A stretch of DNA of 64,000 nt, from positions 15,934,136 through 15,998,135 of the forward strand of contig CM071579.1 of NCBI GenBank assembly GCA_036426205.1. Direction: 5' to 3'. This document shows, in pieces, positions 3,080-56,412 of the stretch (within the stretch, counting starts at the first letter, position 1; each line of letters starts with the position of its first letter). A program made the translations under genes and the position numbers. Origin of the DNA: Ascaphus truei (lineage: Eukaryota; Chordata; Amphibia; Anura; Ascaphidae). Under the pieces are notes generated by a model. That model worked only from the letters and a program-made list of their open reading frames with translations, was not told the origin of the DNA and searched no databases.

Positions 3080-3128
3080 GGCCAAATAGCACAACGTTTC
3101 GGGAGACACCGCCCCTTGTCAGGTGCAC
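3080..3128 (-). ncRNA. Degenerate hammerhead-ribozyme-like motif
   Basis: On the minus strand the sequence reads CTGACAA, a GGGG..CCC stem, then GAAACGTTG. Compared with the hammerhead core CUGANGA-stem II-GAAA, one G of the first box is missing. It is probably a remnant of the repeat family seen more clearly at 4141, 20866, 51437 and 56352. Confidence 0.35.
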
Positions 3129-3529
3129 AGCAATCATTGTACTAATGTTAATAACATTGCCAATATAATATTCTAATAGAAATAAAGGGGATTTTTATTG
3201 TAACTGTATTGAGTACTTACTAAATAGATATGGTGGTTCCCAGCACTCAAAAAATGAAAAAATAAGTCAAAGACATCAATAGAAAACTAACAATAATGTA
3301 TTGTAACAATAAATGTATAAATTAAGCCAACCCTATTGTAGGCTGGGAGGGAGCCTAACATGAAAAAAGAGGGCTAAACAAAAAGTCTGGAGAGGGAGGG
3401 AGGTGGGGGAAAAAACGTGGGGAATAACAACCATATGGGGAAAAGAAAAAGAAGTAGACAAAAAAGAGAAAAAACACGGGTGACGTATAACATACAGTAA
3501 GGTAAAGGTGATATATTATAGGGGGGCAA

Positions 3530-3570
3530 CGACCGTTTCGGGGACAAAGATTCCCCTTCCTCAGGCCCAT
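3530..3570 (-). ncRNA. Hammerhead-ribozyme-like motif
   Basis: The minus strand reads CTGAGGA, an extra A, GGGG-loop-CCCC, then GAAAC. Both conserved boxes of the hammerhead core are present. The single A between box one and stem II recurs in every copy in this window. The helix III part (GGTCG) is less regular than in the best copies. Confidence 0.4.
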
Positions 3571-3974
3571 TCCCACAAACTGAAATAGTCTGTGGTACTT
3601 CCCTGTATAATATCCCTCCACCTAAACAGCCCTCAAAAAATCAGCAAGAAGACAGAAGTCAAATAATACTAAAGTCAACTAACCCTGGTGTACTGTCAAC
3701 TACCAGGATTAATATCTCTGAGTAAAGCACACAAATATGTCAACCTTACAAAGGAGGTCCCCTAAACAGGCATAAATGAATTAATCCGCATGTAAAACCT
3801 CAATCTCAGGAAAATGCAAATCTCCGCAGTACAAGCTACAAATGAGCAGACAGTGTCCTCATGTCTAACAGGATAATGTCCCCAATGTTAGCACAAGTAA
3901 GAATAGATACTCTAAAGCCAAGCCTGAGCAAAATAGAGTATGGGAGGAAGAGGTAAATGATACAAATCTTTCAA

Positions 3975-4050
3975 GTGTGCTGCTCATCAATGTGGATAGT
4001 TCTGCTCTCCTTGAGGGTTGCCATCTATCCACATTGTTGAGCAGCACACA
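3975..4050. repeat. 25-bp hairpin
   Basis: A near-perfect inverted repeat: GTGTGCTGCTCATCAATGTG at 3977 onward pairs with its complement ending at about 4050, separated by roughly 25 bases. It lies beside the hammerhead-like repeat at 4139 and may mark one end of that element. Confidence 0.7.
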
Positions 4051-4138
4051 TGGAGGATTTGTATCAAGCAAAGAAACAGCACTCAGTAGTATATAGCAAA
4101 AAGATTGTATTCAAACAACATGACAGCACATGTGTAAA

Positions 4139-4175
4139 CCAACGTTTCAGTCTACTAGGGACCTTCTTCAGGGAA
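4139..4175 (-). ncRNA. Hammerhead-ribozyme-like motif, well-preserved core
   Basis: The minus strand reads CTGAAGA, A, GGTC-CCTAGTA-GACT, then GAAACGTTGG. This contains the CUGANGA box, a short stem II and the GAAA box. It is followed by self-complementary ACGT, which could form the very short helix III used by dimeric hammerheads, and a U-U cleavage dinucleotide. Penelope-like retroelements are known to carry such motifs. Activity is not established. Confidence 0.5.
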
Positions 4176-4800
4176 GTGCTAAGGGACACAGGCACCTGGA
4201 AGACATATATACCCCCACCCACCTCGTGTAGACAATTAGGAATCAATTAATCAGTCTAACAGGGAGCTCCACATCACCATTTCACAGCACTGACAGATGG
4301 CGGCCATCTTGGAAAAACGGAGCTCATGTACAGTACAGATCCGAGGTCATGAAGCAACTTAATGTGACACAACTCTCCACTCCTGACCTGGCAAGTACTT
4401 ACTGCTATTCTCCTATCTATAATCCTGACCTGGCTTGCATGACTTCTCAACCTCCTAGGCGCGCCCGCGTGGCTGTGGGTCGGCGTTAACCAATTCCCTA
4501 CCTCAGCACTGCGGTCGCGCTTTGTTTGTGGTGAGCTATGCCTTACAGTATGCTCAGCCACACAAACTTCAACCCCGCTGAGGTAGGAAGTTTCCTGCGC
4601 ACACGCAAGCTACCTCTCTACCCTAGAGGAAAAAATTGTGGGTAGTGAGCAAAACATGCTCTCCCTTCAGGAGGACTTTCGCTCTCTTTCCCGTATCCTA
4701 CAGGAACCATGTCCAACTCTTGTGCCTGCTGTTCCTGATCTTTCCACTACTCCAGCTTTGCCTTTTCCCCTAGAACCTCGTTTACCTGCCCCCAACTGCT

Positions 4801-5460: not shown

Positions 5461-5499
5461 AAGTTCCCATGAGACCCAGGGGAGTTTCATTGGGAACGC

Positions 5500-5760
5500 T
5501 TTTTCTCTCACCTATTTCTACTGACAACCCTTCTCGCATTATTATCCCCATTACTGTCTATGGGGACGGCTTCCAAGTATCTACCCTTGCTTTCCGCGAT
5601 TCAGATTCCGGAGGAAACTTCATAGATCAAGCTTTTGCAGAATGCCATCTAGTTCCAGGCATCAGGTTCCAGGCACAGAAAGAAGCCCATCGCTTTTGAA
5701 GCCATTGACGGAAGACCCCTGCAGCCGGCGTTTATCTCCTTGGAGACAGAGGTGTTTCAA
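5500..5760 (+). pseudogene. Aspartic protease of the chromovirus, active site altered
   Basis: The element's protease should have a D-S-G catalytic loop just before GGNFID. Here the reading is RDSDSGGNFIDQ, which places an Asp where the Gly of the triad is expected. The frame then shifts near 5690 before the start of the RT reading frame. Family assignment rests on its position between the zinc knuckle and RT. Confidence 0.7.
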
Positions 5761-6890
5761 GGTACAAAATACACACCTGGAAAGATCCAAATCAATTTTA
5801 TCAACACTCCTTCCATCAGCGTGATCCTCGGGCTATCCTGGCTACAGATACACAACCCTTGGGTGGATTGGCTCAATAAGGAACCCATTCAATGGAGCGC
5901 CTTTTGCCATAAGAACTGCATCCTTGAAGCAAGTAGCATTGGGGGTACCACCGTGTCCGAGGAGAAGGAAAGGGTACAATTGCCAGAAGAGTACGCTGAG
6001 TTCTGGGATGTCTTCGATAAGGTCAGATCTGAGATTCTTCCCCCTCACCGCCCATTCGATTGTCCCATTGATCTACTTCCAGGCACCACACCTCCTAGAC
6101 CTAGAGGGACTTCCAATCCGTTGTCTATGCCTGAAACCAAGGCAATGAAGGAGTATATTTCAGAGAACTTACAGAGGGGATTTATACGTAAGTCTACCTT
6201 TCCTGCGGGCGCGGGGTTTTTCTTTGTGAAGAAAAAGGACGGTACCTTACGCCCTTGCATAGGACTATCGGCCTCTCAACAAAATCACCGTCAAAACCGC
6301 TACCCTTTGCCCCTCATTTCTGAACTGTTTGATCGATTACAAGGAGCTAGTATTTTTTCTTAATTGGATTTACGAGGTGCCTATAATCTTGTCAGGGTGA
6401 TGAATGGAAGACCGCTTTCAACACCAGAGATGGACATTATGAGTACTTGGTCCTGCCTTTCGGTCTGTGCAATGCCCCAGCCATGTTTCAGGATTTCGTT
6501 AATGAAGTTTTCAGTGATCTTCTTAACTCCTTTGTAATTGTCTATTTTCTCTAAATCCAGACAGGAACACATCTCTCATGTGAAACAAGTGCCCCTTCGC
6601 TTACGCAAGAACAAACGTTTTGCCAAACTGGAGAAATGTAATTTTCAAACATCTACCATATTCCTAGGGTACATAATTTTTGATACCGGCCTCACCATGG
6701 ATCTCGCCAAGGTCAAAGCAGTCCTGGATTGGCCACAATCGATTACCCTTAAAGCAGTACAGTGTTTTCTTGGATTCTCAAATTATTATCGTAGGTTCAT
6801 CCAAAATTTCTCTTCCTTAGTGGCTCTACTTACGGAATTAACCAAGGAGCGGACCCTGCTTCCTGGCCAGCTGCTGCACTTCAGTTTTTT
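5740..6890 (+). pseudogene. Reverse transcriptase of the chromovirus, broken
   Basis: RT would copy the element's RNA. The first half (5740-6360) includes VILGLSWLQIHNP, then FFFVKKKDGTLRPCIGL, NRYPLPLISELFDRL. A TAA stop at 6361-6363 lies immediately before the [11 protein letters not shown] segment. After a frameshift come [20 protein letters not shown] and FVIVY. The metal-binding Y-x-D-D box should follow, but its two Asp codons are missing and a stop occurs instead (6550-6554). The thumb and connection continue from 6555 with [22 protein letters not shown] and FLGFSNYYRRFIQNFSSL. Family identity is clear and the protein is inactive. Confidence 0.88.
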
Positions 6891-6899
6891 GCTCGTCTC

Positions 6900-7335
6900 A
6901 AGAAGGCCTTTGTGTCTGCCCCTATTCTTATTCATCCTGATCCCAAACTCCCTTTTACTCTTGAGGTTGATGCTTCTGATGTGGGTGTAGGCACTCTTCT
7001 GTCTCAAAGGAAGAATTTCTTATCCAGGTTGCATCAATGTGCGTTCTTTTCGGAAAAAAAATCTCAGGCCCAATGCAACTACGATGTCGGGAACCGGGAA
7101 CTCTTATCCATGAAATTAGTCCTCGAAGAATGGAGACATCTGCTGCAGGGTACTGAAGATCCGATAACTGTCCTCACGGATCATAAGAACTTGCTTTACA
7201 TTGAAGGCGCACGTCGCCTGGGAGCCTGTCAAGGCAGATGGTCACTATTTTTCTCTAGATTTAATTTCATAATTTCCTACCTTCCCGGATCCAAGAATGT
7301 CATAGCTGATGCCTTATTTCGGCAATTTTCCCTGG
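6900..7335 (+). pseudogene. RNase H domain of the chromovirus
   Basis: RNase H removes the RNA strand during reverse transcription. All four expected acidic positions can be seen in one open frame: D in LEVDASDVGVG, E in GNRELLSMK, D in VLTDHKNLLYI and D in VIADALFRQF. It is the best preserved catalytic unit of the element. It is joined in frame to the integrase N-terminus (open frame 6912-7955). Confidence 0.85.
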
Positions 7336-8245
7336 ACGACAAGACTGAGGATCAGCAAAAACCCATTCTACCGCCCAAATGTATTCTCTCGCCCACATCA
7401 TTTGGAGCGCTCAAAGACATTGTCCGTCAACAAAGTCACATTCCTCCTGGCATCTCGCCTCCACAGGACCATCTCTTCACTTCTTCCCTGCACCGTAAGA
7501 AGGTCCTCAAGTGGCCAGGAATGCAAAAGGACATAAAGAATTTCGTAGCTGTGTGCCCTACGTGTGCCAGGACTGAAATGCCCAGAATACCTCCGTCAGG
7601 TCTTCTTCAACCTCTACCTGTTCCGGATCGGCCATGGACACATTTGTCCATGGATTTCATTGTGGATTTACCTAGTTCCAAGGGTATGAACACGATTCTT
7701 GTAGTAGTGGACCGATTCTCGAAACAGGCCCACTTCATACCCCTCAAGGGTCTTCCCAATTCTTCCAAATTAGCTGACATCTTCATCAGGGAGATCTTTC
7801 GGTTACATGGAGAACCCTTGGTAATTGTTTCTGATAGAGACTCGCAATTTATTTCCCGTTTCAACCCTGGAGTCTCCTTCCTTCGTAAATTACGGATTCA
7901 ACCCATCTACTCTTCCTCTTGTTCTATCTTCCTCAGGGGTCTCAGCGGCAGATGACAGAATCAAAACATTACAAGACTTGTGGAAAAGAATTCAGGTTAA
8001 CATCAGGCAAGCAGTCAATAGGCAGAAGAATCAGGCAGATCGCCACCACAGACCTGCTCTGGACCTTAAACCTGGCGACAAGGTCTGGTTGTCATCCAGG
8101 AATATCACAGGAAAGTCTCCTCTATGAAATTCGCACCCAGATTTCTTGGACCCTTCTCTATTTCCGAGAGGATCAATCCGGCTGCGTATCGGCTCGCTCC
8201 CCCGTCTTCCATGAGGATCCCTTCCATGTTTCATGTTTCACTTCT
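7335..8245 (+). pseudogene. Integrase of the chromovirus, internal deletion
   Basis: Integrase would insert the element's cDNA. Visible parts are the WPGMQKDIKNFV zinc-domain end with CPTC, then the core Asp residues in HLSMDFIVDLP and VSDRDSQF. The frame breaks near 7855. The following text ([48 protein letters not shown]) belongs well downstream in the family, so the middle of the core is deleted, including the third catalytic residue (Glu). A further frame shift near 8125 leads into [11 protein letters not shown] and FHVSLLKP. Confidence 0.85.
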
Positions 8246-8289
8246 CAAACCTGTGGTCCAGAATGTCTTTTCAGTTCCGGTTCCCTCCA

Positions 8290-8523
8290 CTTCTCCTCAT
8301 ATGGTTCAAGGTCACCTGAGTATGAGATTCAATCTATTCTTGATTTGAAGATCTCCAGAGGATCTCTGCATTATCTGGTGCATTGGAAAGGTTTCGTTCC
8401 GGAGGAAAGATCCTGGATTCTGAGTCATATGGTCCACGCAGCCAAACTGGTTCGCATTTTTCATTCCATATTCCCTGATAAGCCATTGTGGAGTCGCCCG
8501 GAGGTTGCTCCTAAAGGGGGGGG
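8290..8523 (+). pseudogene. C-terminal chromodomain of the chromovirus polyprotein, ending at the polypurine tract
   Basis: The frame reads [33 protein letters not shown] and AAKLVRIFH, the pattern of a chromodomain fused to integrase. It is thought to steer insertion toward particular chromatin. The sequence then reaches a purine run (AAAGGGGGGGG, about 8513-8523) that would prime plus-strand DNA, directly abutting the TG of the LTR. Confidence 0.85.
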
Positions 8524-9781
8524 TGTACTGTGAGGATTCACCATCCTGGCAGTCGCAGACCATCTTATCACCTCAATAACCCTTCCATGACGGACACTCA
8601 GGATGCGCTGTCTCGTGTTGGGAAGCTGTGGGGGTGAACGTGCCGCCAGGGGGCTTCTAGCGGCATCTGCAGTAGGGCACCGCCATTTTGCGCGAGGTCG
8701 CGCATACGTAGAGTAGTCGCGCATGCGCAGTATAGCACCAGGAGTTGCGGCGGATATGTTAGGGTTGGTACGAGAGTCCGCACATGCGCATAAGTTTGCG
8801 CATGTGCAGAAGTTTGTGCATGCGCACGTGTAAGCGCGCGAGCCAGCAGCCAATGGCAAGAGGCTGTTTACGGGGACTACAGCCCCCACAATGTCTAGGG
8901 GCGATCACATGTTGCGCGAGAGCCAATAGGGTTGCTAGAATCCCTGCTGACATGATATAGATACTACAGACAGAGACCACGCTAGTCAGTCGGTGCTGGC
9001 ACAGAGTAAAGGTAGGGTGTGCATGTGCAGGGTGCCAGTAGCCCCTGCACTAGGCCAGAGATCCCCCCCTTAGGCCGCAGCTAGGCCCTGACTCCCCTCA
9101 GCTTGTGGTTGCTGCAGGGACCGCCCCATAGGATAGGGACATGGTCCTGTGGAGCCAGCTTAAGTGAGGGTTACAGCCAGGAAGCGTGGATATCATGGCC
9201 ACTGGTGACAAAGGTGAATCACTCTCTGCAGCTACCAGAGATAAGACATTCCAAAAGTGGATCACTCCATGCGGGAGCCATCCACCGTAGAGGCGGATCA
9301 CGACGTGGGATCACCCTTCTGGAGCAGGGATCCCAAGTACATCATCTGCGCGCACCGGTGTGGACACACCCGGCAGGTACCTTCCTCACAACACATGCAC
9401 CAACCATCTACTCAAATTAGTGGGCAGCGCTGTCTCACACGTGGGTGGCTGTGGGACTCTTGGGACACTGTGTTGGGGAATAAGGTGTGGGTTTAAGGCC
9501 CTGGCGGCCTAGTGTTATTGAGTGACACTGTTGTTATCTTTGTTCTACATATAGTAAACTGTTTAACCATAATCTTGTGTGTTGGTTACTGTATGCGAGT
9601 TATTCTACACACTAGAATCCTGCACAGGTGGAGGCACTGTAAGTATCGTTATACACCCCAGGTTTCCATCAGCGGAGGCTCAGGCCTCCTGTGAGCCTAA
9701 CAGGTATTGCACCAGACACAGTAATACATGTAGATTCCCACACAGGGTCCCTATCTGTGATTGGGGGGAATATGTGTTACA
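8524..9781 (+). repeat. 3' LTR of the chromovirus (about 1.26 kb)
   Basis: It begins TGTACTG right after the polypurine tract and ends TTACA at 9781. Its last 100 bp, read on the minus strand (TGTAACACATATTCCCCCC), match the start of the solo LTR at 47078. An internal word, AGAGACCACGCTAGTCAGT at about 8963, recurs on the opposite strand near 19150. It contains several GCGCATGCGC words and a CpG-rich 5' third. The four bases after it are CATA. Confidence 0.75.
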
Positions 9782-26317: not shown

Positions 26318-26378
26318 TGTCTCCCCACTCCAAGACGAAGCGCTGTTCTACAGCGTGAAACGCGTTGTGGGGGAGATC
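26318..26378 (+). ncRNA. Hammerhead-ribozyme-like motif with long helix I
   Basis: TCTCCCCAC (26320-26328), CAAGACGA, A, a GCGCTG/CAGCGT stem, GAAACGCGTT, then GTGGGGGAGA. The first and last segments are complementary and would form helix I. ACGCGT after GA is self-complementary, suiting a short or dimeric helix III. Box one is altered (CAAGACGA rather than CUGANGA). Confidence 0.4.
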
Positions 26379-26779
26379 GTGGTGTAGCCTTGTGTGCGTC
26401 AATGTGCTAATAAAGTTTTTTTTCAACTTACCCGGAAGTGGCCTGGATGCTTGTCACTAGCAGTGGCGCCGGATCTTCTTTCTTCCCATTCTAATCTTCA
26501 GAAGGCTGCACGCGGGGCAGAGGAGAGCAGGACCCAGATCGGAGAGCTTCAATAGGTAAGAGGTTTCCCTCCCAGCTCGGATCTATCCAAAGGTCCCCTG
26601 CTGCTCCCTCCTTTTCCATCCCACAGTGACTGCACTGACACCTACGGGTGCGGATACCTTACCGGAGCGCAGGACAGTTTCTTTCTTCCTGGGCATAAAT
26701 ATACTCTGATGCTGTGCCCAAATGTTAGGGTAAAAGCCAAACAAAAGACTTTCCAGAACTTGGACAAAGTAGTAATCTC

Positions 26780-32914: not shown

Positions 32915-33451
32915 TCATATAATGTTTGGTTTTTAGTACGTCGGAAACAAACATTCTTCATTTCTTTGGCTGCCTCACACTTGGGTTGCTAGTTACCTTC
33001 CTGTCCTAAGATAAGAGGACGATTTGCACAATTGTTTCTAGACATGATGATGGCATTGCAAAGCTGGGTCACTGTCTGACGTCTAATAATGCCACAAGTG
33101 AGACCCGTTATCATATAGTGGCGGATTTACGAAACTGCCGCCCTTAGGCACTTACCTGGTGCCACCCTCCTCCTTCTTCAGCGTCAAATGATGTTACGAT
33201 GTCACATATGGTATGGTGTGGTACCCTTTTCCCTGCAAGGGTAAAGGAGATTAGGAGAGACTCTTGGGGCCTCAAGCCCCTGGGGTCTGCTCCAGGGAAT
33301 GGAGATATGCCATGCTGTCTGCACAATAAACCTGCTGTTGAACCAACCATGCTGTGTAATTATTGGGAAGGAGAATTGCCTGTGGGGACAATCCTGCTTT
33401 CAGCCGGATCCTCGTGGGATGGAGACGCTGTACTACAAGAAGGAGAAACAA
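32915..33451. other. No gene; fragment of a CGTCAAATGATGT repeat
   Basis: The 33120-33200 part (ACGAAACTGCCGCCC, GCGTCAAATGATGTTACG) resembles the GC-rich repeat near 10930. The remainder is unassigned. Confidence 0.35.
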
Positions 33452-33942
33452 GAACACTGTAGAGGATTGGTTAGACACTCGAACAAGCCCCAAGCACTCA
33501 CAACTCACCGGGTAGGAACAAAAATAAAATAAATTTTATTAAACTACATAATAAAAGTGACAAACGGGATATACTGGGACAAAACAAACAAAACTCTCCT
33601 CCCACATGTTTCACGCTCTAACAGCGCTTTCTCAAGGAGTATTGATCAGAGGGTATATTGCCTAGTTATATAGCCCCTCTTGGCAAACACAATTGATTGT
33701 ACATTAATTACATATATAATGTATAACTAGGCAACATACCCTCTGATCAATACTCCTTGAGAAAGCACTGTTAGAGCGTGAAACATGTGGGAGGAGAGTT
33801 TTGTTTGTTTTGTCCCAGTATGTCCCCAGTTTGTCACTTTTATTATGTAGTTTAATAAAATGTATTTTATTTTTGTTCCTACCCGGTGAGTTGTGAGTGC
33901 TTGGGGCTTGTTCGAGTGTCTAACCAATCCTCTACAGTGTTC
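33452..33942. mobile_element. Foldback element, about 220-bp arms with hammerhead-like motifs
   Basis: Arms 33452-33670 and 33721-33942 are inverted copies around a 50-bp spacer. Shared words include GAACACTGTAGAGGATTGG, CAAGCCCCAAGCACTCACAA, and ACATAATAAAAGTGACAAAC. Each arm has a degenerate core: CTTGAGA, A, AGC-loop-GC, GTGAAACATGTGGGAGGAG (minus 33604-33640, plus 33755-33790). GGGAGGAG can pair with ACTCCTT before box one. Confidence 0.7.
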
Positions 33943-33944
33943 TT

Positions 33945-34895
33945 GATTCTGCTTTCTGATTGGATGGACCCGCAGCAGCAGTGCAGGACTGGCTTCTTGC
34001 TTCATTGTCGGTATACAGCTTTGGAGATACAGCGTATGTGTTATGGCACACTTTTCCCTGGATCAACTGTGACACAAAGATTGCAACATCGCGCAGGACA
34101 AACAGAGGTAATTTCAAATCATTTACCCACTATGAGATATTTTCTTGCCAGCAATTTGTACAGAGCGAGATAGGTTAACTCACTACCACGGAGAGATATA
34201 CAGCCTGCCACACTTATATACACTGTCTCCTGATCATTATAATACCCCTGCACGTGAAGGCTGCTGACAACAAGCCATTCCATACTACGTTTATTAGCTC
34301 ATATAACCACTATCCCTTCCACATGTGCTGGGATTTAAGTGTCTTTAGAGCTGCCAATGGTCTCTATATATTTCTCATATAAGAAGGAGAAAGCCTGCAC
34401 TGTTGCTGCTCCCATACAACAATCACGGAGCAACTCAGACCTCCTGTACCAAGCAGGTGAGCGACAGCACTGGGGCTTACCTTCAGGATGGTCTCAGGCC
34501 TCTGATGCCCCAGCTCTACCACTGCGCGCCTCCTGTGTGCCTTCTCCCTCTCTCATGCTGTTCTGGCCTCCCTCCCTGTCCCGGGCCTCTTTTTCCTCAC
34601 TGTCCCGCTCCAGTCCTCTCTCTCTCATGCGTGTGCCAACATCAGAGAGCCTTGCATGGGACATTGAGAGACGCCCGTAGCTGGCGAGAGCTGGGGGCCG
34701 GCGGCAGAACAAAGCAGTTGGGCCCGACCTCTGGGACCATTTTTTTGGCCCAGCTGCCGGTCCTCACGTTGCTGGCTCTCCCCAGCTGTGGAGACCTCTG
34801 GCTGGGCCCAACTTCCTGTGCCGGCCAGGCCCCCCGCAGCCAGGAGAAGGCATTTAACAGGGGGGATCATTGATTCCTCATACAGACCCTTCAAG
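33945..34895. other. No gene recognised
   Basis: CT-rich sequence around 34530-34640 gives open frames on both strands without recognisable domains. No family assigned. Confidence 0.3.
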
Positions 34896-34899
34896 CATT

Positions 34900-34932
34900 C
34901 GGCTTGGGTCCACATTTGTGGGCCTTCTTCAG
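34900..34932 (-). ncRNA. Degenerate hammerhead-like motif
   Basis: The minus strand reads CTGAAGA, A, GGCCCACAAATGTGGACC, then CAAGC. Box one and a strong stem II are kept but the GAAA box is lost. Confidence 0.3.
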
Positions 34933-35013
34933 ATGCTGTACGCATCTGCATAATGTCTGGTGAAGATTAATTGGTCCCTGACAACACCTTTGGCGTGTGG
35001 TCAGGGAGTACGT

Positions 35014-35740: not shown

Positions 35741-35744
35741 ATGA

Positions 35745-37720: not shown

Positions 37721-37799
37721 TAATCCTTTTTTAGTGCACTTTATTTTAAGTTACTGTTGCACTAAATCCGGGTTTATGTTATATTTGTGTTAGTCTGGT

Positions 37800-38848: not shown

Positions 38849-38849
38849 C

Positions 38850-39952: not shown

Positions 39953-39960
39953 ATTTAGAT

Positions 39961-40143: not shown

Positions 40144-40159
40144 ATTTAGATGAAGAACT

Positions 40160-41401: not shown

Positions 41402-41404
41402 CAG

Positions 41405-41930: not shown

Positions 41931-41933
41931 TGT

Positions 41934-42330: not shown

Positions 42331-42429
42331 AAATGCTGTTATAAATAAATAAAAAATAAATACATTGTCTCTTGCACTCAGAAGCAATATGGTGGTATTC
42401 AATATGAATGGGGTTTAAATCTTTCCTAG

Positions 42430-43589
42430 TGTAGCCCCCTTTCCCCCGTGTCTAGTGAAACTACCAGTGGTGTGTTACCTGAGTGGCTTGCAGGAGACCT
42501 GATCCTCCGCCGCTGGGAGCCTGGGGTGATTGTGTTCGTGTTACACAGTGCCTCCACCTGGGAGAGATCCTAACACAGTAGGATTACCTCTCTCAGTCAC
42601 CCAATATATACAGTAAATACACACACCGGGTATAGAACAACAGTATTTACTGACATAAAACACACACCAAAATATAACCGTGACCACACAATGCTCTGCA
42701 CCCACAGTAACACCACCCACCCTGGTAGAGCCCCCCAAAGTACTGAGGTGCCTGGGCACTTAACCCGTTAGTGTCCACAGACCAGGCCCACCCAAAGCGT
42801 GCATGTGTAGAGTAGTGCTACCCACAGTGTGTATGGCCGTTGGTGCACGTGATACCTCTCCCGGTCTCAGTCCAGACCAGGACAATCCAAAGATGTTGAT
42901 CTGTCGGACCGCACAATTATCCCACGCCGCGTCTACCATGTCCTTTCCATCCACCACTGGAGGGATCTCCCGCATGGAGTGTGTCCATGTAAAGTGTCTC
43001 TGGTAGAGTGCCGGTGTTCTGGTCACAGACCACTGGCTGTGCGCAACACGTGGCGTCCTCCACCGGTGCACTACCACTGTAAACTACTGGGGAAGCATCC
43101 CTATCTATGGGCCTTCCCTGAAGCAGCCACAAACTAGACGTGTTGGGGCCTAGCGGAGGCCTAAGGGGCAAATCTAGGCTTAATCCAGAGGATTAAGAGG
43201 ACATTACCTCTCTGGTTGCTGCTGCCCTTCCGACAGGCGTGGTGCTTTTCGCACGCCAAATGTATCTATTCCCTTCATAAGGAATCCGGCTGCCCGAATG
43301 GCTGTGCTTGCCCCCGTGGGTACCTGCCCTGGAGTCTGCTGGGACTTGTGGTCTGTGCGGAGCCTGCCTCTAATGGCCACCGCACTGTGCTCCCGTTGCA
43401 CATGCGCAGAGCTCCTATCGCACATGCGCGACTATAAAAATGGTGGCCCCCGCTTGCCGGATGCACCGCGGAGCTCCGGACTGCTCTCCCTAACTGCCCC
43501 ACCGCCACTACTGGAGACCAGGTCCCTAGGCAGCCCGGCGGTACCCACCCCTGCACCAGCGTCGGAGGTAAGAGGGGAACCTGGCTACA
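42430..43589 (-). mobile_element. Solo LTR of the chromovirus family, antisense
   Basis: Starts TGTAGCCCCCTTTCC and ends CCTGGCTACA. It carries the family's GATCCTCCGCCGCTGGGAGC, GTGCCTCCACC and CACATGCGCGAC words. The flanks (CTAG left, TCAG right) do not form a clean 4-bp duplication. Confidence 0.7.
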
Positions 43590-44149
43590 TCAGCATATAA
43601 AGCTTACAAACTAAACTGGTATCTCCTTATTCGACATGAACCTGCTTCCCAGTATCGGAGAAGAGACCAGCTCTATTTAAATGATAACATCTTCTCCAGT
43701 ACAGGGAAGTGACTATTAAACTATTGAATTAAGGTCTTAGAAGCTTTTTTTGTACAAATTGTTTCATCAGTATGTTGAACTTTGTCTAAAATAACTTTTC
43801 CTTCCTTCCACGATTGAGGCTATAAGTCCACAAGCGGGTTTATATTTAGTTTAGAATTACATGTTGTGAAGCTTAGACTTTACATTAAATGGTTATATAT
43901 AATGTTTCCCATTCATTAAAATACTGTGGCTGCTCCACAACGCTGCAATAAAAGACAAAACAACCTAAAAAAAGAACCACCAACTGAATTTACCTAAAAT
44001 GAACGTGTCGTCTTAAAGAGACAGTCCCACACACCCAGTCAAAGAATCAACCAATAGAAAGTTAGGGTGGGCCGGTTTCGCTGGTTTCCCTTCCGAATCT
44101 TGCAAAGTTTAAACTTCATTCAGAAGTTTGGGTTAAAGAAGCAGAACCG

Positions 44150-44830
44150 GCTGCATTGCGTTTTAAAATTTATTTGATAAATTACAGGTTTGAAGCAGGG
44201 GGTCTCTAGTGCTTAACTGTGTTAATTTCAGCTCCCGGGACCCCCTGCTTCCAGACATACTTACCTCCGTAGTGGTGCCTGTATCCCCTGTGAAGTTTAA
44301 ACGTCCCGACACGCTGGCCAATAGGTACTGTAGCTGCAATGGATGATGTCACAGCTTCCTATTGGAATGAAGATGGGGCACACGGACTTCCAAAATAAAG
44401 AGATTTATTAAAGCATACACAACGTTTCGACCCTAAGGTCTTTGTCAAGTGCAAAAAGTCAAGTGCCCCTTTTGCACTGACAAAGACCTTAGGGTCGAAG
44501 TTGCGTATGCTTTAATAAATCTCTTTATTTTGGAAATCCGTGTGCCCCATCTTCATTCCTTTTTGTATGGCCGCGGGAGCAACCGGTAATTGGTATCACT
44601 CTTTATATCATATTGTGGGTGCAGCCATTTACTCTTGTTTCTATCACAGCTTCCTATTGGCCCATAGGACATTTAAATGCCGCCATTATGTTAGGCACAA
44701 CACGCCGTTCCTGCCTGCCCGCTATGGACGAAAGTAGGGGATCCCCACAGCTGAAATTAACACAGATCAGCTCCGGAGACCCCCTGCTTCAATCCTGTAA
44801 TGAAAAATAAAATAGCAAAGTTCCAGCCAA
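44150..44830. mobile_element. Foldback element built of the AGCAGGGGGTC module, interrupted by a second foldback
   Basis: TTACAGGTTTGAAGCAGGGG and GTGTTAATTTCAGCT on the left are mirrored by AGCTGAAATTAACACAG and CCCCCTGCTTCAATCCTGTAA on the right (44747-44800). Near the centre, GGCCAATAGG and CCTATTGGCCC are mirrored. The 278-bp element at 44366 sits in the spacer. Confidence 0.65.
44366..44643. mobile_element. Foldback insertion with hammerhead-like motifs and a 17-bp target duplication
   Basis: TCACAGCTTCCTATTGG occurs at 44349-44365 and 44644-44660, an exact 17-bp target-site duplication. Inside, arms 44366-44456 and 44470-44559 are inverted copies (AATGAAGATGGGGCACACGG and CCGTGTGCCCCATCTTCATT). 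Each holds a core-like motif, TTGACAAAGACC-TTA-GGGTC then GAAACGTTG (complete on the minus strand at 44419-44449, damaged on the plus strand). An 80-bp unpaired tail follows. Duplications of this size suit target-primed retroposition. Confidence 0.8.
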
Positions 44831-45056
44831 AACCAGTGAAAGCTTTTTTTGGAGGGGCAGGGGGGGGGGGGGCGATACAACCTGGCCATACTTTTAGGTA
44901 TGCTAATGTAAAAACTAGCGAAAACGTCAAAGTTCGAAAGTTCTCCCCGCATTTCTAAAAACCTTCTGGAGATTTTTCCATATTTTGTTTTAGAAATCCC
45001 CACACCGCTAATAAAAATGTATCAATGGGATCAGCGTCCTTAGAAAGACCCTATTA

Positions 45057-45236
45057 CAGGGGTGGGCAACGCCAGTTTCTACGTGCTACCAACAGGTCAG
45101 GCTTTCGGGGATATACTCTGCTTCAGCACATGTGGCTCAATCAGTGGCTCAGTCTTACTGCACCCCAGTGCTGAAGCAGGGGTAGCTAAAAATCTGACCT
45201 ATTGGTGGCCCTTGAGGACTGGAGTTGCCCACCCTT
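45057..45236. mobile_element. Palindromic hAT-type MITE, diverged copy
   Basis: Starts CAGGGGTGGGCAACGCCAGT and ends ACTGGAGTTGCCCACCC. The middle (CAGCACATGTGGCTCAATCA) and its mirror are diverged. No clean 8-bp duplication. Confidence 0.75.
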
Positions 45237-45239
45237 CCC

Positions 45240-47077
45240 ATACAATTGGAGTGAAACTATGACTGTCTTTCTGTTAAAAGACTGGTGTTTTTTTGAGTCC
45301 GAATACAAAAAAAAAGTAGTGGTACGGTGTCAGCTTTCGGGAAATACTCACTTAAACTTAGGGCAAAACGATCGTGAACAAACACAATCCAGCCCTGAAA
45401 ACTTTAGCATTCGTTTTTGCCAAACGACTCTCACATTCCCAAACGCTGGGGACAGCCTCATAAATCAGTGACATGCTGAATGGTGCTAACACAAAAGGAT
45501 TCAGTTTGTACACGGCCAACTAATCTGATGAAGAAACCATTTGTTTTCCTGTTTGGTACGAGTGATATCTCACTGCTGACAAAGTGGATTTATTTCATAT
45601 ATTACCCCCCTGTTTTTGGTGGATACAAAAGCGGAGGGAATACTTCATTGTGTTTGTCTGTGTGCAGGAATACGCTGCGATTACACTAAGTGCAAAGTCC
45701 TCTGGAACAAGTTCAACAATGTGTATGTGGAATGTGGTTAAGCACTGCAAACATGCTGCGTTCTGATACTATTTGAAGCATATTCATGTTTCTGTGGGAA
45801 TCATTTTCCCAGTCATCATAATGTAAGTTAATTGTCAATTAATGAACTGGAGTTTTCTGATTCCTGGTGTGGCTTTGGAAGGCTTGTTTGGAAATTGTGT
45901 TGCTGTTCTTCTTTTTCGTACTATTCTGCGACTCTCTTTTGCGTTCACGTTGGAATTGCGTGCAGACTGGAGGGCTCGGTAATGGATCGATGTTCTAACT
46001 GCAGCGCCAAAACGTAAAATCAGGTAGGTCTCGCGTTTGGGGAGCTAAAGCGATCCTGTGTGGCGATTGGCTTGAAGTGTTGCACGTGATGGAACTTTCT
46101 TCAAACATATTTGTTTTCTTCCACAGCTCCAAACCAAAGGAAAAATAAACTGGAACCAAATGCCGAGCAAATGGAGCCAACTACAACACATGGGTCTCTA
46201 AAATAACAGGAGATGTCTGTACATGCCTGACCAGTACAACACATCCATAAACAGGCCTATAACGGTCTTGTGCCAGTATCGGCTGTGGGCCGATTACCCA
46301 TGTACCTAATAGACATTGCTACACAACCATAGTCATGTGTGCACCTCTTATCACACGTGTGCAGGTGGCATGCGTCAACCTTCCACATTATCTACTTTAA
46401 TAACAATCCAGTTCAACAAGCTTTGGTTTTAACATGTTGCTTGTTGCGCTGCATAAATATTACAAAGTGTTCCAAACCATAAAAAATCCACTGAGCCTAA
46501 AAATCAAAAAGTTGCAGAGTAAGAATGCAGCTGAATACTGAATAATATGAATATAGATGTATAGCACTATGAATTGTTATAATATTTTTGCTGACATGTT
46601 TAAATTCCTCTCTTTATGGTATGAGTTGGAAGAACTTTAGAGCTCAGTGTTATGCGACAAAAACAACCCTTTATCAACTGCAATAATATCATTGCTGGAA
46701 AAAGCTGTGAAGCTTTATCACTTATATGGTCAAAGGCAATAGTCCTTCTCCAAAGAACAAGACTTCTTAATTAGTTTTCACTAGTTGATGTTTATCCTTT
46801 GGCATTTGTCGGGGATCTGCAGTGATGTACAGTATGGGGGCTTTTCTTTGAATACCTGAGTCGTTTGTCTGGCCTTTTCCAGATAAGCTGAACCCCACAT
46901 AAACAATCTCAATTCTGGGCTGGGTTACTCTTTCCCACAGCAGTGTTTCATCAGCTGTCGCAACAACACTGTAATTACCAGCAAGGAGCCGATTTTCATC
47001 AACATACTTTTTTTCTGTGCTTATGCACTGTGCTTATAATGTATAATGCTTTGCTCTGTGCTTATAATGTATGTATG
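45240..47077. other. No gene recognised
   Basis: About 1.8 kb of AT-moderate, mostly unique-looking sequence. Short frames with weak splice-like ends (for example near 45669) lack any protein family signal. Confidence 0.3.
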
Positions 47078-48808
47078 TGTAACGGGTATTCCACCCCCCC
47101 CAATCTCATTATAGTGTGGGTGAGTAGAACATGTAGTGTTACCGGTGTGGTGCGTATACCTGTAGGCTCACCAGGAGTCTGAGCCTCCGCTAATGAGAGC
47201 CTGGGGTGTAACCTCTGGAACGTTTCTTGGTTCAGCGCCTCCACCTATGTAGGTCTAGGGAAGTGTAGAATGACCCTACATAGGAACTCAAATCAGAAAA
47301 CCACACACACAGTGATTTATATTATAACTAAGGACTTTACTACAGAATATAATAATAACCTGTGTCCCTCTCACGAGGGGACACTGACAGTGACGTCTCG
47401 CAGGACGATTCCCCGACAACAGGTGATCCCCACCCAGTGTCCCAAGAACCCCACCCCCAATGTCCCGTACTCCTACAAGATAGTCACTGTGTGACTGCGC
47501 AGTCAACTAAACCTCTAGTCCTTTTGGTGCACATGTGATGACATAATAACCTGCCGAGCACTCCGGTGCCGGGTCACAACAGCTTCTAAAAGGATCAGTC
47601 GAGCGATGCCTCCTTCTGATCCTCCAACCGACCCCCTGCAGACAGTAACACAGTCTCTGTGGACCCAACGTGGGTCCCAACCGCTTTCCGTGAACAGCAA
47701 CGTGACACACCCTGCACTATAGGCCGTCCCTATAGCACACGAGCATCCTTAAGTGGCTTAGGGGTCAATCTCCTAGGGCATTCGGGGTTCCTATCCTATT
47801 AGGTAGGTCTTGTACCCCACCCTACTCATAATCGGGCCCTGGGCCATGGATCCCCGCTGGTTACGGCGATGAACCCCCCCCCCCAGTTTGCCTCGTACTC
47901 GAACGCGCAACGCCGGCCTGGGCAATGGCTCCCCGGATTGGTTACCGCTATGAACCCCCCCCCTCGCCTCGCCACTCACTCCGCAACACGGACCCTGCTA
48001 TGCTCCCGGACTGGGTTACCTGCCTATGAACCCCCGCTTCCTCTTGCCCTAAATTACAAACAGGAACCCTGGCTATGCCCCGAGTGGTTACCGCTATGAA
48101 ACCCCCCAGTTGTCCCTATTCTTCCCTTCTGTTCCCCAGTTGCCAAACTAAAGTAAGTGACAGGTTCCCTATCCTGAGGGTGTCCCTGTGCAACACTCAC
48201 ACTACTGGGGACTCAGTGGCTATCTTTTGGGCCAAGGGGGGTGCTGCCTGTACAGGAGTCCCCCTCGCTCCTCTACCCTACCTCCTTCCATGTCTGCTCC
48301 TTGGCCTGACTGCCCACGTAGCTGCAAGCCCGCCAAATGTATCCTTTTCTCCTCCTGGCAGTCCTACAGCCCTATTGGCTCCTATGAGGCACCTGGTGCC
48401 TCCCTCGCTAAGCACTATGGGAATTGTAGTCCCTGGGCGCCTGTAATAACATTGGGGCCGCATGCGTGCCTTTCCTACACCTGCACTAACCCCTAATGGC
48501 CGCCGCAACATCCCTCTCACTGTCCCTACTCTCGCGCGACTCCTGCGCATGCGCGAGTGGTGGAGTAATGGCGGCGCTCTCTTCGCCAGCCGCCGGGACC
48601 TTAGAGACGCGACCGTGGCCTTAGCAACGGCCCGATCGCGTCCCCGGCAACCGGCCCGCTCGCGGAGACAGCGCACCGCTCCCTGCAACGGCCCCCACCC
48701 TTGGGATGGCCGTCGGGTCTGCCGCTGGCCTCCGGCAGCACCCGGCATCTCTCCTGGCCACGGAGGCTCCCTAGGAGGACGAAGGGGAAAACAGGTGACC
48801 TGGCTACA
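47078..48808 (-). mobile_element. Solo LTR of the chromovirus family, antisense, longest copy
   Basis: Starts TGTAACGGGTATTCC and ends GACCTGGCTACA. TATG flanks it on both sides (47074-47077, 48809-48812). The start matches the inverted end of the 3' LTR at 9781. A tandem-like section of CTATGAACCCCCC units (47860-48110) and a CpG-rich segment with GCGCATGCGCGAG (48480-48700) lie inside. Confidence 0.75.
47865..48110. repeat. Degenerate tandem repeat inside the solo LTR
   Basis: Repeated GGTTACGGCGATGAACCCCC-type units with intervening CCTCGCC and GGACCCTGGCTATG text, about 65-75 bp each, roughly 3-4 copies. This helps explain why this LTR is longer than the others. Confidence 0.65.
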
Positions 48809-48814
48809 TATGTA

Positions 48815-49970
48815 TAGTGGGAGTTAGATGCTATAGATGAGCCTTATATGTGCCTTACTTTACTTTCTAATTAAGCCATCTTTAGTGTCCAATAGCAAAA
48901 AATGAAACGTAGTTGAAGTGAAGAATACAATCACATCTTGGCAAAAGAGTGAGAGGAAATATCCCCAGAACGTTTTCCATGTCAACATGTTTACTCCATA
49001 AAAGGGAATCAAATCTTCCATGAAGGGTATTTTCACCCACCGCAGCATGACTGTGTGTAGGTCTGAAACATTTGTGATGCCTCTTTAGATAAATACTGTT
49101 TACCTTGCAATGAATTGAACTACATATATATTGTTTTTGTCTCCATTTGTTGGTGTATTCATGATTTGTTTGTGTATGTAGAAGACAGCTGTAGCCATAA
49201 TGGCCCATATGTAAATGGTTTCACTATATTTCATAGAGTCAGTCTGTCATCTTTCAATTGGTAGACTCATTTCATATGTCTACACAAATTGGGTTCTAAT
49301 GTTTGCAAAGCTACAGCCCTGCTGAATTTATTACCGTATTAGGTTACCTCAAGACGAATGGGGAGTTTACAGTTGAATTGTAGGTAAAACAAATCTGACA
49401 GTGAGAACGTAGAAGTTTTATGTGGTCCTTACACAGCTGGGCAATAAGGTTCACAGACTCGCATGGAGCCCCTCCGAGTTGGGCAGCTAAGAGTGTTTGA
49501 GTAATCATCTTCTCTGATACATAACTTTCCTATCAACCAACTGAGTCCCAAAGGCTCGCTCCAGCGAGAGTAAAAGACGTAGCCAGGATTCTACCATTAC
49601 TGACCAATATTCGGGGATTTCAAATTGATCTTTCAAATGTAAAGAAGATAGAAGTGCTGATGGGAAAAAGAGGTGTTCTGGTCTTGTTTGTTGTTTTTAC
49701 AATTCTTCACATTTTTGCTTGGCTAAGCTACTGTATAAAACAGTTAATCTGTACTTTTTAAAGAGACTCCACAGAATGAAGAGCAGATGAGCTCAGTAGC
49801 TTAGCAGTTGGCAAGCCTATCCTCCGTGTGTTCCAAGACACATTTTCTATATTTGTTTTTACAGCGCGATGTGTGAATATGCCCCTTCTTGAATCTGAAC
49901 GTCTGCATTCATGCGCGAGTGGCAGATTTTCCATCTCCAATGCAAAGTCAAAAGGTGTTTGCTTAAAGCA
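48815..49970. other. No gene recognised
   Basis: AT-rich unique-looking sequence. No supported exon or repeat. Confidence 0.3.
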
Positions 49971-49978
49971 GGGGGGCT

Positions 49979-50139
49979 CAACTCCAGTCCTCAAAACCCT
50001 CCAACAGGTCAGGTTTTAAGGATATCCCAGCTTCAGCACAGGTGGCTCAATCAGTTGAGTCACCTGTGCTGAAGCTGGGATATCCTGGAAACCTGTTGGT
50101 TGGTTGGGGTTACTTGAAGACTGGAGTTGAGTACCAATG
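49979..50139. mobile_element. Palindromic hAT-type MITE
   Basis: Starts CAGGGGGGCTCAACTCCAGT and ends ACTGGAGTTGAGTACCAATG. GCTTAAAG (49971-49978) and GTATAAAG (50140-50147) are an 8-bp duplication with two differences. Nearly full-length self-complementarity through CCTGTGCTGAAGCTGGGATA. Confidence 0.88.
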
Positions 50140-50499
50140 GTATAAAGGCCATATCCAGAAGAATAAATATATTCTCAGCTGAAGAGGAGTCAGTTTTTAT
50201 GGGTCTCTCTCCCCCCAATCCACATAAATTTCACAGGGGGGGGGGGGGATCTTTTTATCTTTGCTTGTTTAGATTTCTTCAATCTAAATTTACTATATAG
50301 TTCAGCTGACAGACAAATTCCTCCCAAAAAGACAGACAAAGTTAGCTGAGTCATTTTTAGAACACTTTACATCCCTAGTAACAGGGAAATTAGTTTGGGG
50401 ATTTACTGCTCAGAAGCAAGAGGTAGCTGAGCGCACCAATAGAGGATGCAATAGAATTAGTGCAAATAGATCATTTTAATGACTGAACACAGTCATAGA

Positions 50500-50540
50500 A
50501 CATCCAACGTTTCGGTGACTAACACCTTCATAAGGGACGC
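50500..50540 (-). ncRNA. Degenerate hammerhead-like motif
   Basis: The minus strand reads CTTATGA, A, GGTG-TTAGT-CACC, GAAACGTTGGATG. A perfect 4-bp stem II and the GAAACGTT box are kept. Box one has an altered second half. Confidence 0.4.
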
Positions 50541-50599
50541 TCAGAATCATCAAGGCCCAAATCTTTGAATCTATATGAAAATGCATATAGTTCCTAGCT

Positions 50600-51305: not shown

Positions 51306-51548
51306 GATTGGTAAACAAGAGACAGCACTCAATGTTGAAAATCAAAGTGTATTAGTGAAAGCAAAAATACATCCAGAACCCAACGTTTCGGTCCTACAGA
51401 ATGGACAACCTTCCTCAGGGGGATACAAGTATCCCCCTGAGGAAGGTCCCATTCTGTAGGACCGAAACGTTGGGTTTCTGGATGTATTTTTGCTTTCACT
51501 AATACACTTTGATTTTCAACATTGAGTGCTGTCTCTTGTTTACCAATC
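51306..51548. mobile_element. Near-perfect palindrome with two back-to-back hammerhead-like motifs
   Basis: Left arm ATTGGTAAACAAGAGACAGC pairs with the right end GCTGTCTCTTGTTTACCAAT. The arms meet at GGGGGATACAAGTATCCCCC around 51426. The plus motif at 51437-51475 is CTGAGGA, A, GGTCC-CATTCTGTA-GGACC, GAAACGTTGGG, with CCC before box one. The minus motif at 51380-51418 is the same apart from a small stem II insertion. The arms are about 120 bp. Confidence 0.8.
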
Positions 51549-54489: not shown

Positions 54490-54684
54490 AGCTTTAGGGT
54501 TTTATCAGAGACTGTGCATGCAATGTCTTGTATATAATGTATACCCTGTTCATTTATGTAACTGTCTTTGTAACCATGTATTATTTGTCTTAACTCTGTG
54601 CCCAGGACATACTTGAAAACGAGAGGTAACTCTCAATGTATTACTTCCTGGTAAAACATTTTATAAATAAAAATAAATAAATAA
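54490..54684 (+). mobile_element. LINE-type 3' tail, plus strand
   Basis: Contains TGCATGCAATGTCTTGTATA, AACTCTGTGCCCAGGACATA, GAGAGGTAACTCTCAATG and an ATAAATAAATAAATAAA tail. It is the sense-strand counterpart of 12250-12440. Confidence 0.6.
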
Positions 54685-55448
54685 AAGTGACCACTGCTAC
54701 TTTTGTGGAGATCACAACAAAGAATACAAATGGTAAGTCAGACCATGAAGAGAAACTCATAGGAAATATAGAACCAGACCTACTTCAGATTAGAAACTAT
54801 GGGACCATCAGGTCATTGGATGTATTCATTTGCTCACTGAACCTTGAAATTGTTGAAGGAGTTCGACTGAAACCTGGGTATTATGATGAAACTACCTACA
54901 CTTATCAAACTCCTTTGAAAGGCAGAATGATTATACACACATAGTTTTATCGTAGTCCTTTGAAAGCTATATGCTTAGGAATGTGTAACAGAAGGCAGGA
55001 CAGGGAGAATCAGCAGTGATGTGCACCGTAAGAAATAGATGATAGTTCTTTAATCTGTTTAAATATTTTAATCCTAAAACATTAGCTCTTTGAAGTTTTC
55101 TTGTATCAATGTTATATGAGCAAAAACACACCCCAACCACCTGAAATAACAAGAGACACAGGCCCTTAAGAAAGATTTGTTTATCCTGGATTTGCCATGA
55201 AAGCAGTCAGCAGTCTAATTCTGGAGACAATTATATAAAGCACGAGTTATTTCACAACAGATCATCTCGACCACCAGAAAATGATAGCTTTATGAACCAG
55301 TTGCAAGGATGAATTTAGCATTTTACCCACAGTTCCTTTTGACATGTAACATGGCTCATGTTAGGTTCAAGTTGATGAATTCTTCTTATTCCACAAGGTT
55401 TTTGTTTGCATCTGGTTTCCTTGTGGTTGGATGTATAGAAAACAAGAG
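54685..55448. other. No gene supported
   Basis: An 85-residue open frame at 54687-54944 starts directly after the LINE tail and contains a GGTAAGT donor-like site near 54732. No acceptor or family match supports an exon. Confidence 0.3.
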
Positions 55449-55449
55449 A

Positions 55450-55638
55450 ACGACGCTCCAGCGGACTTGGTAATCAGATAAAACAAATGTACTCTAAGAG
55501 GATTGACGTTTTGGTCATAACATGGACCTTTGTCAAGATGGTCTATGTTAAGACCGAAACGTCGATCCTCTTAAAATAAAAAAATTTAAATAAATGTACT
55601 TTATCTTATTACCAGGTCCACTGAAGTGTCGATTTCTG
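55450..55638. mobile_element. Foldback with overlapping hammerhead-like motifs
   Basis: Arms about 55450-55527 and 55557-55638 are inverted: CCAGCGGACTTGGTAA pairs with TTACCAGGTCCACTG, and AAATGTACTCTAAGAGGAT with ATCCTCTTAAAATAAA. Motifs: plus GTCAAGA, TGGTC-loop-GACC, GAAACGTCGATCC (55532-55567), and the minus equivalent with GTTTTGG instead of GTTTCGG. Confidence 0.65.
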
Positions 55639-56339
55639 GTTTCCATACATTCAGTTATACCTCCAGTCGTTTGGGGGATTCCTGGGCACCCGTGGCGGAT
55701 CTCTCGCTATTGTGAGTGCACCTACTTCTCTTTTCTTTGTGGTTGGGATAGTTTTATATTTGGTGGTGGTTCTTGTTTTTATTGAACCTGCTGTTGACCT
55801 CAGTGCCGGGGCATCTTACAACATATTACTGCCATCTGCACCACTAAAGGGGCTAATACTAATAGGACAATGTGTCTTCTTTCTCCACCTTGGTTGGTCT
55901 TCTCTTCTTCAGTCCGGTGCTGTCAGATAGCTGGAAGACAGTACATATTACCTGCGCTTTATGAAGTATGCAACTGGTAAAAGGATTGGCCTGATATATA
56001 GAGAAAACAAAAGAACAAATCTCCAGCACTCCTACCAATTTTTGCTAAAATATACTAGTGACGTTTACATTTAGAACATAAATCTGTGTGACAAAGAAGT
56101 CATTTGGTTGCATCTTTTGATCAAAACATGATTCAAGCCCGCCGACCTCGTCAAGGCAGACTCTGTTTACCAGGCACCTACACTGAATATAAGTCATTTC
56201 TTTATTGTCCCGTGGACTAAACTTTGTGACATATGTGAAAGTGCCCTGAAGGGGTTAAATAAATGAAGCATATGCTTTTATGATTTAGTGCTATTAAAAG
56301 CCGGCCAAAGCCAGTGTAGCCAGGCTGGTTTCCTTGGCT

Positions 56340-56412
56340 ACTAAGTCTGCCCTGACGAAGCCGTGTGTACCTAACGGCGAAACGCGTAGATTGTCCAGTC
56401 AGACAGTATCCA
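56340..56412 (+). ncRNA. Hammerhead-ribozyme-like motif, best-preserved core
   Basis: CTGACGA (56352-56358), A, GCCG/CGGC stem II (56360-56363 with 56375-56378), GAAA (56379-56382), then CGCGTA to 56388. The ACGCGT string is self-complementary and UA is a permitted cleavage dinucleotide. GTCTG at 56345-56349 can pair with CAGAC at 56401-56405 as a distal part of helix I. The arrangement fits type-I hammerheads with a minimal helix III. The single extra A is the main departure from the textbook core. Confidence 0.55.

What the first reader, a model, noticed from the sequence alone, without database searches (positions are those of the whole stretch)
3080..56412. About 18 hammerhead-ribozyme-like sites in one 64-kb window, many as inverted pairs
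At 3090, 3535, 4141, 19583, 19875, 20866, 26330, 33604, 33755, 34900, 44419, 44475, 50504, 51382, 51437, 55506, 55532 and 56352 the same order recurs: CUGANGA-like box, one A, a compensated short stem, GAAA, then a short self-complementary string (ACGT, ACGCGT, AGCT or ACATGT). Stem sequences differ between copies but usually still pair, as expected of selected RNA structure. Penelope-like elements are known to carry hammerheads in their pseudo-LTRs. The density and the constant extra A deserve a close look.
Basis: partly seen in the sequence, partly recalled or inferred. Interest (0 to 1): 0.75.

Follow-up and report, generated by a model that had tools for sequence, protein, structure and literature searches.

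The report
Retrotransposon self-cutting RNA relics
The repeated motif is a hammerhead-type self-cutting RNA belonging to a known group of jumping genes (Penelope-like elements), present in many thousands of copies in this vertebrate genome; the copies in the window look like old fragments, and the main new point is how clearly the genome-wide copies show that the RNA's shape is conserved.

Summary
Eleven of the 18 sites are firmly supported by a descriptor scan or a covariance model, two more weakly. Rfam finds no hammerhead in the window even at E<=10, but a model built from copies elsewhere in the genome has ten of the 18 as its ten best window hits. The exact motif occurs 12,087 times in this 2.8-Gb genome, against 52 for the reversed pattern. 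Across 60 families stem II, stem I and the core C3-G8 pair co-vary. Best explanation: minimal type I hammerheads in pseudo-LTRs of Penelope-like elements (PLEs). In genomic copy L117, inverted repeats carrying the motif flank RT and GIY-YIG frames. The window's five inverted pairs point outward, as do five of five genomic neighbours within 500 bp, as described for PLEs. The extra A is nearly universal. Forty-five of 99 sampled copies carry U3-A8 instead of C3-G8, a swap reported before in a few natural hammerheads. A large new set of a known kind; cleavage untested; no PLE coding sequence found in the window.

The parts
3083..3132 (-). hammerhead-like site A (core CTGACAA, no extra A, ACGT palindrome, stem I GCAC/GTGC)
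   Evidence: R1 model 28.7 bits, E 2.9e-6; descriptor score 20
3518..3574 (-). hammerhead-like site B (C-rich family)
   Evidence: R1 30.7 bits, E 7.1e-7; descriptor score 14; 80% to L019 over 76 nt
4131..4181 (-). hammerhead-like site C
   Evidence: R1 33.5 bits, E 1.1e-7; descriptor score 18; flanks about 73% to L079, L069, L075
19558..19939 (.). inverted pair D: sites near 19617 (-) and 19878 (+), AGCT palindrome type, outward facing
   Evidence: arms 19558-19610/19887-19939, 96%; descriptor score 13 for 19617; background in R1; family also in L088 and L006
20855..20907 (-). site E (stem II 6 bp, ATGCGT, stem I CCC/GGG)
   Evidence: descriptor score 15; R1 E 1.1, background
26322..26380 (+). 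site F, degenerate core AAGACGA with extra A, stem II 7 bp, ACGCGT
   Evidence: sequence; similar head-to-head pair in L124; no R1 hit
33440..33954 (.). inverted pair G: sites near 33634 (-) and 33758 (+), U3-A8 core, ACATGT palindrome, long palindrome
   Evidence: arms of 129 and 105 nt, 97%; R1 E 7.3 each, background
34886..34942 (-). site H, CTGAAGA core and stem II but no GAAA; degraded
   Evidence: sequence; no R1 hit
44364..44559 (.). inverted pair I: 44411-44458 (-) with U3-A8 core, 44466-44512 (+) with C3-A8
   Evidence: R1 42.9 bits, E 1.6e-10 and 14 bits, E 0.074; arms 60 nt, 97%
50496..50544 (-). hammerhead-like site J (stem I 8 pairs, two of them G.U)
   Evidence: R1 32.2 bits, E 2.6e-7; flank 76% to L032
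51306..51548 (.). inverted pair K: 51372-51428 (-) and 51427-51481 (+), best preserved copies
   Evidence: R1 39.8 and 56.8 bits, E 1.3e-9 and 1.1e-14; arms 76 nt, 99%; 95% to L104
55495..55568 (.). inverted pair L: 55495-55546 (-) with U3-A8 core and truncated partner 55540-55562 (+)
   Evidence: R1 E 0.00084 and 0.0056; sequence
56342..56401 (+). site M (CTGACGA core, stem II 5 bp, ACGCGT)
   Evidence: descriptor score 20; no R1 hit

Best explanation
[quoted passage not shown] In the element's RNA the core (YUGANRA, an extra A, stem II, GAA), a stem I of about 3 bp and a palindrome (ACGU) that would pair with a second copy as stem III form a hammerhead that should cut after H17 when two copies meet. 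The insertion ends lie downstream of the ribozyme. The outward-facing inverted pairs are head-to-head insertion products, arising either because both target strands prime cDNA or by self-priming. Shown here: the motif, its covariation, the link to RT and GIY-YIG frames in one copy, and the geometry. Inferred: cleavage, dimer action, insertion ends and the origin of the pairs.
For: 12,087 exact genome matches against 52 for the reversed pattern. Over 60 families, 88.9% of pair cells are paired against 63.8% shuffled, and the covariation score is 0.695 against 0.225 shuffled and at most 0.193 when slid. Core pair: CG 31, UA 25, CA 4, UG 0 of 60. Genome: C3-G8 5,712 and C3-A8 325 of 12,087. In L117, 621-nt inverted repeats (94%) each carry the motif and enclose frames matching RVT_1 (24.5 bits, below Pfam's cut-off of 29.6; E 2.6e-5) and GIY-YIG (27 bits, above its cut-off of 22.6). 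Neighbours within 500 bp: 5 of 5 outward facing, against 0.26 neighbours of any kind expected if uniform. Published: minimal HHRs in PLEs (PMC7761336, passages); head-to-head pLTRs with palindromes (PMC3846280, passages); a PLE protein that cleaves and extends both strands and a PLE HHR whose cleavage needs C3 and G8 (PMC11167929, main text).
Against: No Rfam hammerhead in the window. No PLE coding sequence found in the window. The first pair of stem I does not co-vary and pairs 4 to 8 are not clearly above chance. Two of the five covariation measures do not exceed shuffles. PLE frames were found in 11 of 60 motif loci against 0 of 20 arbitrary loci, but four of the 11 supplied queries, leaving 7 of 56, which is not a strong contrast. 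Five of the eight PLE pieces tested had no Pfam match. Cleavage is untested; in PMC11167929 HHR cleavage was not needed for insertion in vitro. Neighbours within 6 kb also include 2 convergent and 1 tandem of 12, with 3.2 expected by chance. In the window, sites A, B and C lie on one strand 0.4 to 0.6 kb apart, so not all close neighbours are inverted pairs.
Confidence: 0.9

Rival explanations
1. The structure is conserved for a job other than cleavage, for example as part of the protein-binding and reverse-transcription start region of the PLE RNA, and the hammerhead likeness is a relic.
For: Rfam misses it in the window. 49 of 99 sampled copies have A8 instead of G8. [quoted passage not shown]
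Against: Positions 3 and 8, stem I and stem II are kept in pairing register together, which is what catalysis needs. U3-A8 is reported active in vitro (PMC3088659, passages). The PAc hammerhead does cleave with protein.
Confidence: 0.2
2. The inverted pairs are a separate foldback or MITE-type DNA transposon whose terminal repeats happen to carry the motif.
For: Long near-perfect palindromes such as 33440-33954 and 51306-51548. An F-type copy also lies in a palindrome (L124).
Against: Members of one family occur both singly and as pairs. Inverted copies flank RT and GIY-YIG frames in L117. Arm lengths vary between pairs, and no clear target duplication was seen by eye.
Confidence: 0.05
3. Chance resemblance plus one unstructured repeat consensus.
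For: Five of the 18 sites are at background or degenerate, and two more are near control level.
Against: 9 descriptor hits against 0.22 in shuffles; 60 diverse families with changing but paired stems.
Confidence: 0.01

Closest known systems
Minimal type I hammerhead ribozymes of Penelope-like elements (Cervera and de la Pena 2014; Lunse, Weinberg and Breaker 2017; neither held here, known through PMC7761336 and other citing papers)
   Same: Core box, stem II, GAAA, almost no stem III, position in PLE pseudo-LTRs, thousands of dispersed copies in many animal genomes (passages of PMC7761336)
   Different: Here the extra A after A9 is nearly fixed and U3-A8 is about as common as C3-G8 in the sample. 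Whether the 2014 and 2017 papers already show this could not be checked.
PAc (Poseidon, Anolis carolinensis) PLE and its hammerhead (PMC11167929, main text)
   Same: RT plus GIY-YIG protein, HHR in the pLTR, downstream tail, cleavage and extension of both target strands
   Different: In PAc the ORF begins at stem II. In L103 the first Met seen in the matching frame lies about 370 nt downstream of the motif (read by eye; the true start is unknown).
Head-to-head inverted pLTRs of Adineta vaga Penelope elements (PMC3846280, passages)
   Same: Inverted pLTRs with palindromic junctions, most often head-to-head
   Different: The word hammerhead does not occur in that paper's main text; here each arm of L117 carries the motif.
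Canonical amphibian type I hammerhead of retrozymes / newt satellite (PMC7229834, passages); compare L001-L008 here
   Same: Same core and stem II, palindromic stem III region
   Different: L001-L008 score over the Rfam cut-off and lack the extra A. That they are retrozymes was not tested.

Membership tests
Hammerhead ribozyme (type I, minimal) | CUGANGA and GAAA core | tested here: met
   5,712 of 12,087 pattern matches have C3-G8, 325 C3-A8, the remaining 6,050 have U3; so the strict core is met by about half, and the paired variant U3-A8 by 45 of 99 sampled
Hammerhead ribozyme (type I, minimal) | stem II pairing with compensatory change | tested here: met
   4 of 5 stem II pairs change on both sides (the fifth was fixed by the search pattern), 92.3% of cells paired, 60 families
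Hammerhead ribozyme (type I, minimal) | stem I pairing next to C3 and H17 | tested here: met
   pairs 2 and 3: 92 and 67 of 99 paired against shuffled means 54.6 and 33.3; pair 1 does not co-vary, pair 4 is at chance
Hammerhead ribozyme (type I, minimal) | stem III (in cis or through a dimer) | tested here: inconclusive
   the palindrome was fixed by the search pattern; pairing between two molecules not testable here; a search on the 6-nt palindrome class did not complete
Hammerhead ribozyme (type I, minimal) | Rfam gathering score | tested here: not met
   no hammerhead hit in the window, even at E<=10
Hammerhead ribozyme (type I, minimal) | self-cleavage after H17 | not testable with these tools
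   needs an RNA assay
Penelope-like element | RT domain | tested here: met
   RVT_1 E 2.6e-5 (L117, 24.5 bits) and 1.6e-6 (L101, 28.4 bits), both below Pfam's cut-off of 29.6
Penelope-like element | GIY-YIG endonuclease downstream of RT | tested here: met
   L117:3844-4473, 27 bits, cut-off 22.6
Penelope-like element | pseudo-LTRs, direct or inverted, with optional tail | tested here: met
   L117 inverted 621-nt repeats; the two tail ends were judged by eye only
Penelope-like element | coding sequence in the window copies themselves | tested here: not met
   tblastn of eight PLE pieces against the window: no hit at E<=0.01

The most novel reading that the evidence does not exclude
PLE hammerheads of this genome form a distinct structural subclass: a nearly fixed extra A between A9 and stem II together with exchange of the C3-G8 tertiary pair for U3-A8, probably at thousands of copies each (5,712 with C3-G8; 6,050 with U3, and all 45 sampled of these have A8). 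This would mean that position 8, whose 2'-OH is thought to act as the general acid, can be A on an evolutionary scale, and that the extra A is a compensating part of the core, perhaps for protein-assisted folding.
Probability: 0.3. Interest if true: 0.6.

Novelty: new member of a known kind. Interest (0 to 1): 0.4.

Why it matters
One vertebrate genome offers many thousands of diverged copies of a ribozyme core. That is enough to read which core positions tolerate change and which pairs are exchanged together. It makes two open points directly testable: whether U3-A8 hammerheads with the extra A cut, and whether head-to-head insertions mark two-strand priming by PLEs.

Tried and rejected
Rfam scans at gathering and at E<=10 found no hammerhead in the window; microRNA-family matches below cut-off on the palindromes were set aside as hairpin artefacts. 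A first alignment of 17 window sites was gappy and not used for a model. A tree on 120 nt downstream of the motif was poorly resolved: counting changes of base 3 alone (C or T), the fewest is 6 and only 2 are forced by well-supported branches, so the number of independent C3-G8/U3-A8 switches is low or unknown. A blastn script for arm boundaries and target duplications returned no row for any of the five window pairs and gave little for the genomic ones. A Pfam accession recalled from memory was not in the library. Passages of PMC11014351 did not help. A foldback DNA transposon was considered and rejected as the main reading. Host species was not settled: of two protein matches one is from a frog, Ranitomeya imitator.

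Full report
What was claimed.

Checking the window. Rfam 15 finds no hammerhead in the window, at gathering score or at E<=10. Sixteen of the 17 window sites that were aligned carry the extra A. The sites at 26330, 34900 and the 33604/33755 pair deviate from the plain motif: core AAGACGA, loss of GAAA, and ACATGT followed by G at the would-be cleavage position.

The genome. The window lies in a 2.82-Gb genome, G000, on contig C13. The pattern YTGANRAAG-N10-25-CGAAACGTT, read from the window, has 12,087 exact matches against 52 for the reversed pattern. Apart from the first pair of stem II it leaves the stems free. The window itself holds three exact matches, where the genome average would give about 0.27. 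From the 100 listed rows, all from the first 20 Mb of one contig, I used 99 distinct sites with flanks (loci; counted).

Covariation. In the 99 sites stem II pairs 2 to 5 form standard pairs in 96/99, 93/99, 95/99 and 77/90 cases (shuffled means 76.7, 61.5, 54.6, 38.2); pair 6 is at chance (29/74, mean 28.2). Stem I pairs 2 and 3 do so in 92/99 and 67/99 (means 54.6, 33.3). Stem I pair 1 is no better than shuffled (88 against 88.5), and pairs 4 to 8 are not clearly above chance. With one member from each of 60 families, 88.9% of cells are paired (shuffled 63.8%) and the covariation score is 0.695 (shuffled 0.225; best slid version 0.193). Two other measures, pairs with a change on both sides (7 against 7.0) and further pair types (26 against 25.1), do not exceed shuffles. 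The families share ancestry, so shuffles overstate significance; the slid controls keep relatedness.

The core pair. Positions 3 and 8 pair in the hammerhead fold. Among the 99 sites: C3-G8 50, U3-A8 45, C3-A8 4, U3-G8 0. In the whole genome C3-G8 has 5,712 and C3-A8 325 matches, leaving 6,050 with U3; how many of these are U3-G8 was not obtained because the search did not complete. A tree of downstream flanks needs at least 6 changes of base 3, of which well-supported branches force only 2, so this is strong association but few shown independent events. The exchange itself is not new: PMC3088659 (passages) reports C3-G8 to U3-A8 in several natural hammerheads and says such ribozymes had been shown active in vitro.

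The extra A. With any base but A at that position the genome has 749 matches against 440 for the reversed pattern, a net of about 309 against about 12,035 with A. Hence roughly 97% carry it, though the two patterns are not identical (the first also fixes the following G). Eight canonical hammerheads of the same genome, L001-L008, lack it. [quoted passage not shown]

Independent model. The other eight listed sites are at background or absent; all eight have a palindrome other than ACGT or none, which the model does not cover well. Twenty arbitrary stretches (33 kb) gave best hits of 0.0093 and 0.057, so the two weakest of the ten are not clearly beyond control. One of these stretches, L124, also holds a head-to-head pair related to site F. 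At E<0.01 the window has 9 hits in 64 kb against 1 in 33 kb: richer, but the comparison is small and the window was picked for these sites.

The element. In L117 two inverted 621-nt repeats (94% identical), each with the U3-A8 motif pointing outward, enclose four frames. The third matches RVT_1 (E 2.6e-5, below the curated cut-off) and the last GIY-YIG (27 bits, above cut-off). A C3-G8 copy (L101) lies beside another RT frame (RVT_1 E 1.6e-6, below cut-off). The other five of the eight pieces tested had no Pfam match. tblastn with these pieces finds relatives in 11 of 60 motif loci (four of them sources of queries) and in 0 of 20 arbitrary loci, and none in the window. The GIY-YIG piece has two relatives in the protein database, one from a frog.

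Inverted pairs. In the window all five inverted pairs have the minus-strand copy on the left and the plus-strand copy on the right, so their downstream ends face out; sites A, B and C, by contrast, are same-strand neighbours. Among the 100 genomic rows 5 of 5 neighbours within 500 bp face out (0.26 neighbours expected); within 6 kb it is 9 of 12, with 2 convergent and 1 tandem (3.2 neighbours expected). Head-to-head pLTRs with palindromes are described in PMC3846280 (passages), whose authors favour self-priming. PMC11167929 (main text) shows a PLE protein that cuts and extends both strands and starts copying at an internal site matching the genomic tail. Two cDNAs joined at their 5' ends would give this geometry; that is inference.

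Mechanism and limits. The most likely reading is a minimal type I hammerhead acting as a dimer through its palindrome, in PLE RNA, possibly helped by the PLE protein as in PAc. Whether cleavage matters for transposition is open: in PAc, mutants still inserted. No cleavage was tested here.

Novelty. The kind is known (PMC7761336 and PMC6155905, passages). The 2014 and 2017 primary papers could not be read, so I cannot say whether the extra A or the U3-A8 class is already in print for PLEs. One paper search with the terms C3-G8 and U3-A8 among others listed 15 of 150 papers, none of those 15 holding either term; that is no proof of absence. I rate it a new member of a known kind with a useful data set.

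Noticed in passing
L001-L008 (1501-1545; L006 1428-1472): Canonical type I hammerheads over the Rfam cut-off, without the extra A and with CAGCTG- or CGGCCG-type stem III in most; 42 matches listed with only 74 of 344,898 candidates scored.
   Followed up: partly
19558-19939, L088, L006: AGCT-type family (site D) is a separate genome repeat whose core is partly decayed.
   Followed up: partly
L124:540-800: An arbitrary control stretch holds a head-to-head palindrome with an F-type site and AATAAA downstream of it.
   Followed up: no
5653-8533: Degraded reading frames that look Gypsy-like (RT, RNase H and integrase-like text); judged by eye only.
   Followed up: no
32717-50104 (copies near 32717, 39961, 45057, 49969): A dispersed repeat with related inverted copies, recurring at least four times.
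   Followed up: no
40941-41402: Tandem array of a 22-bp unit, 21 copies.
   Followed up: no
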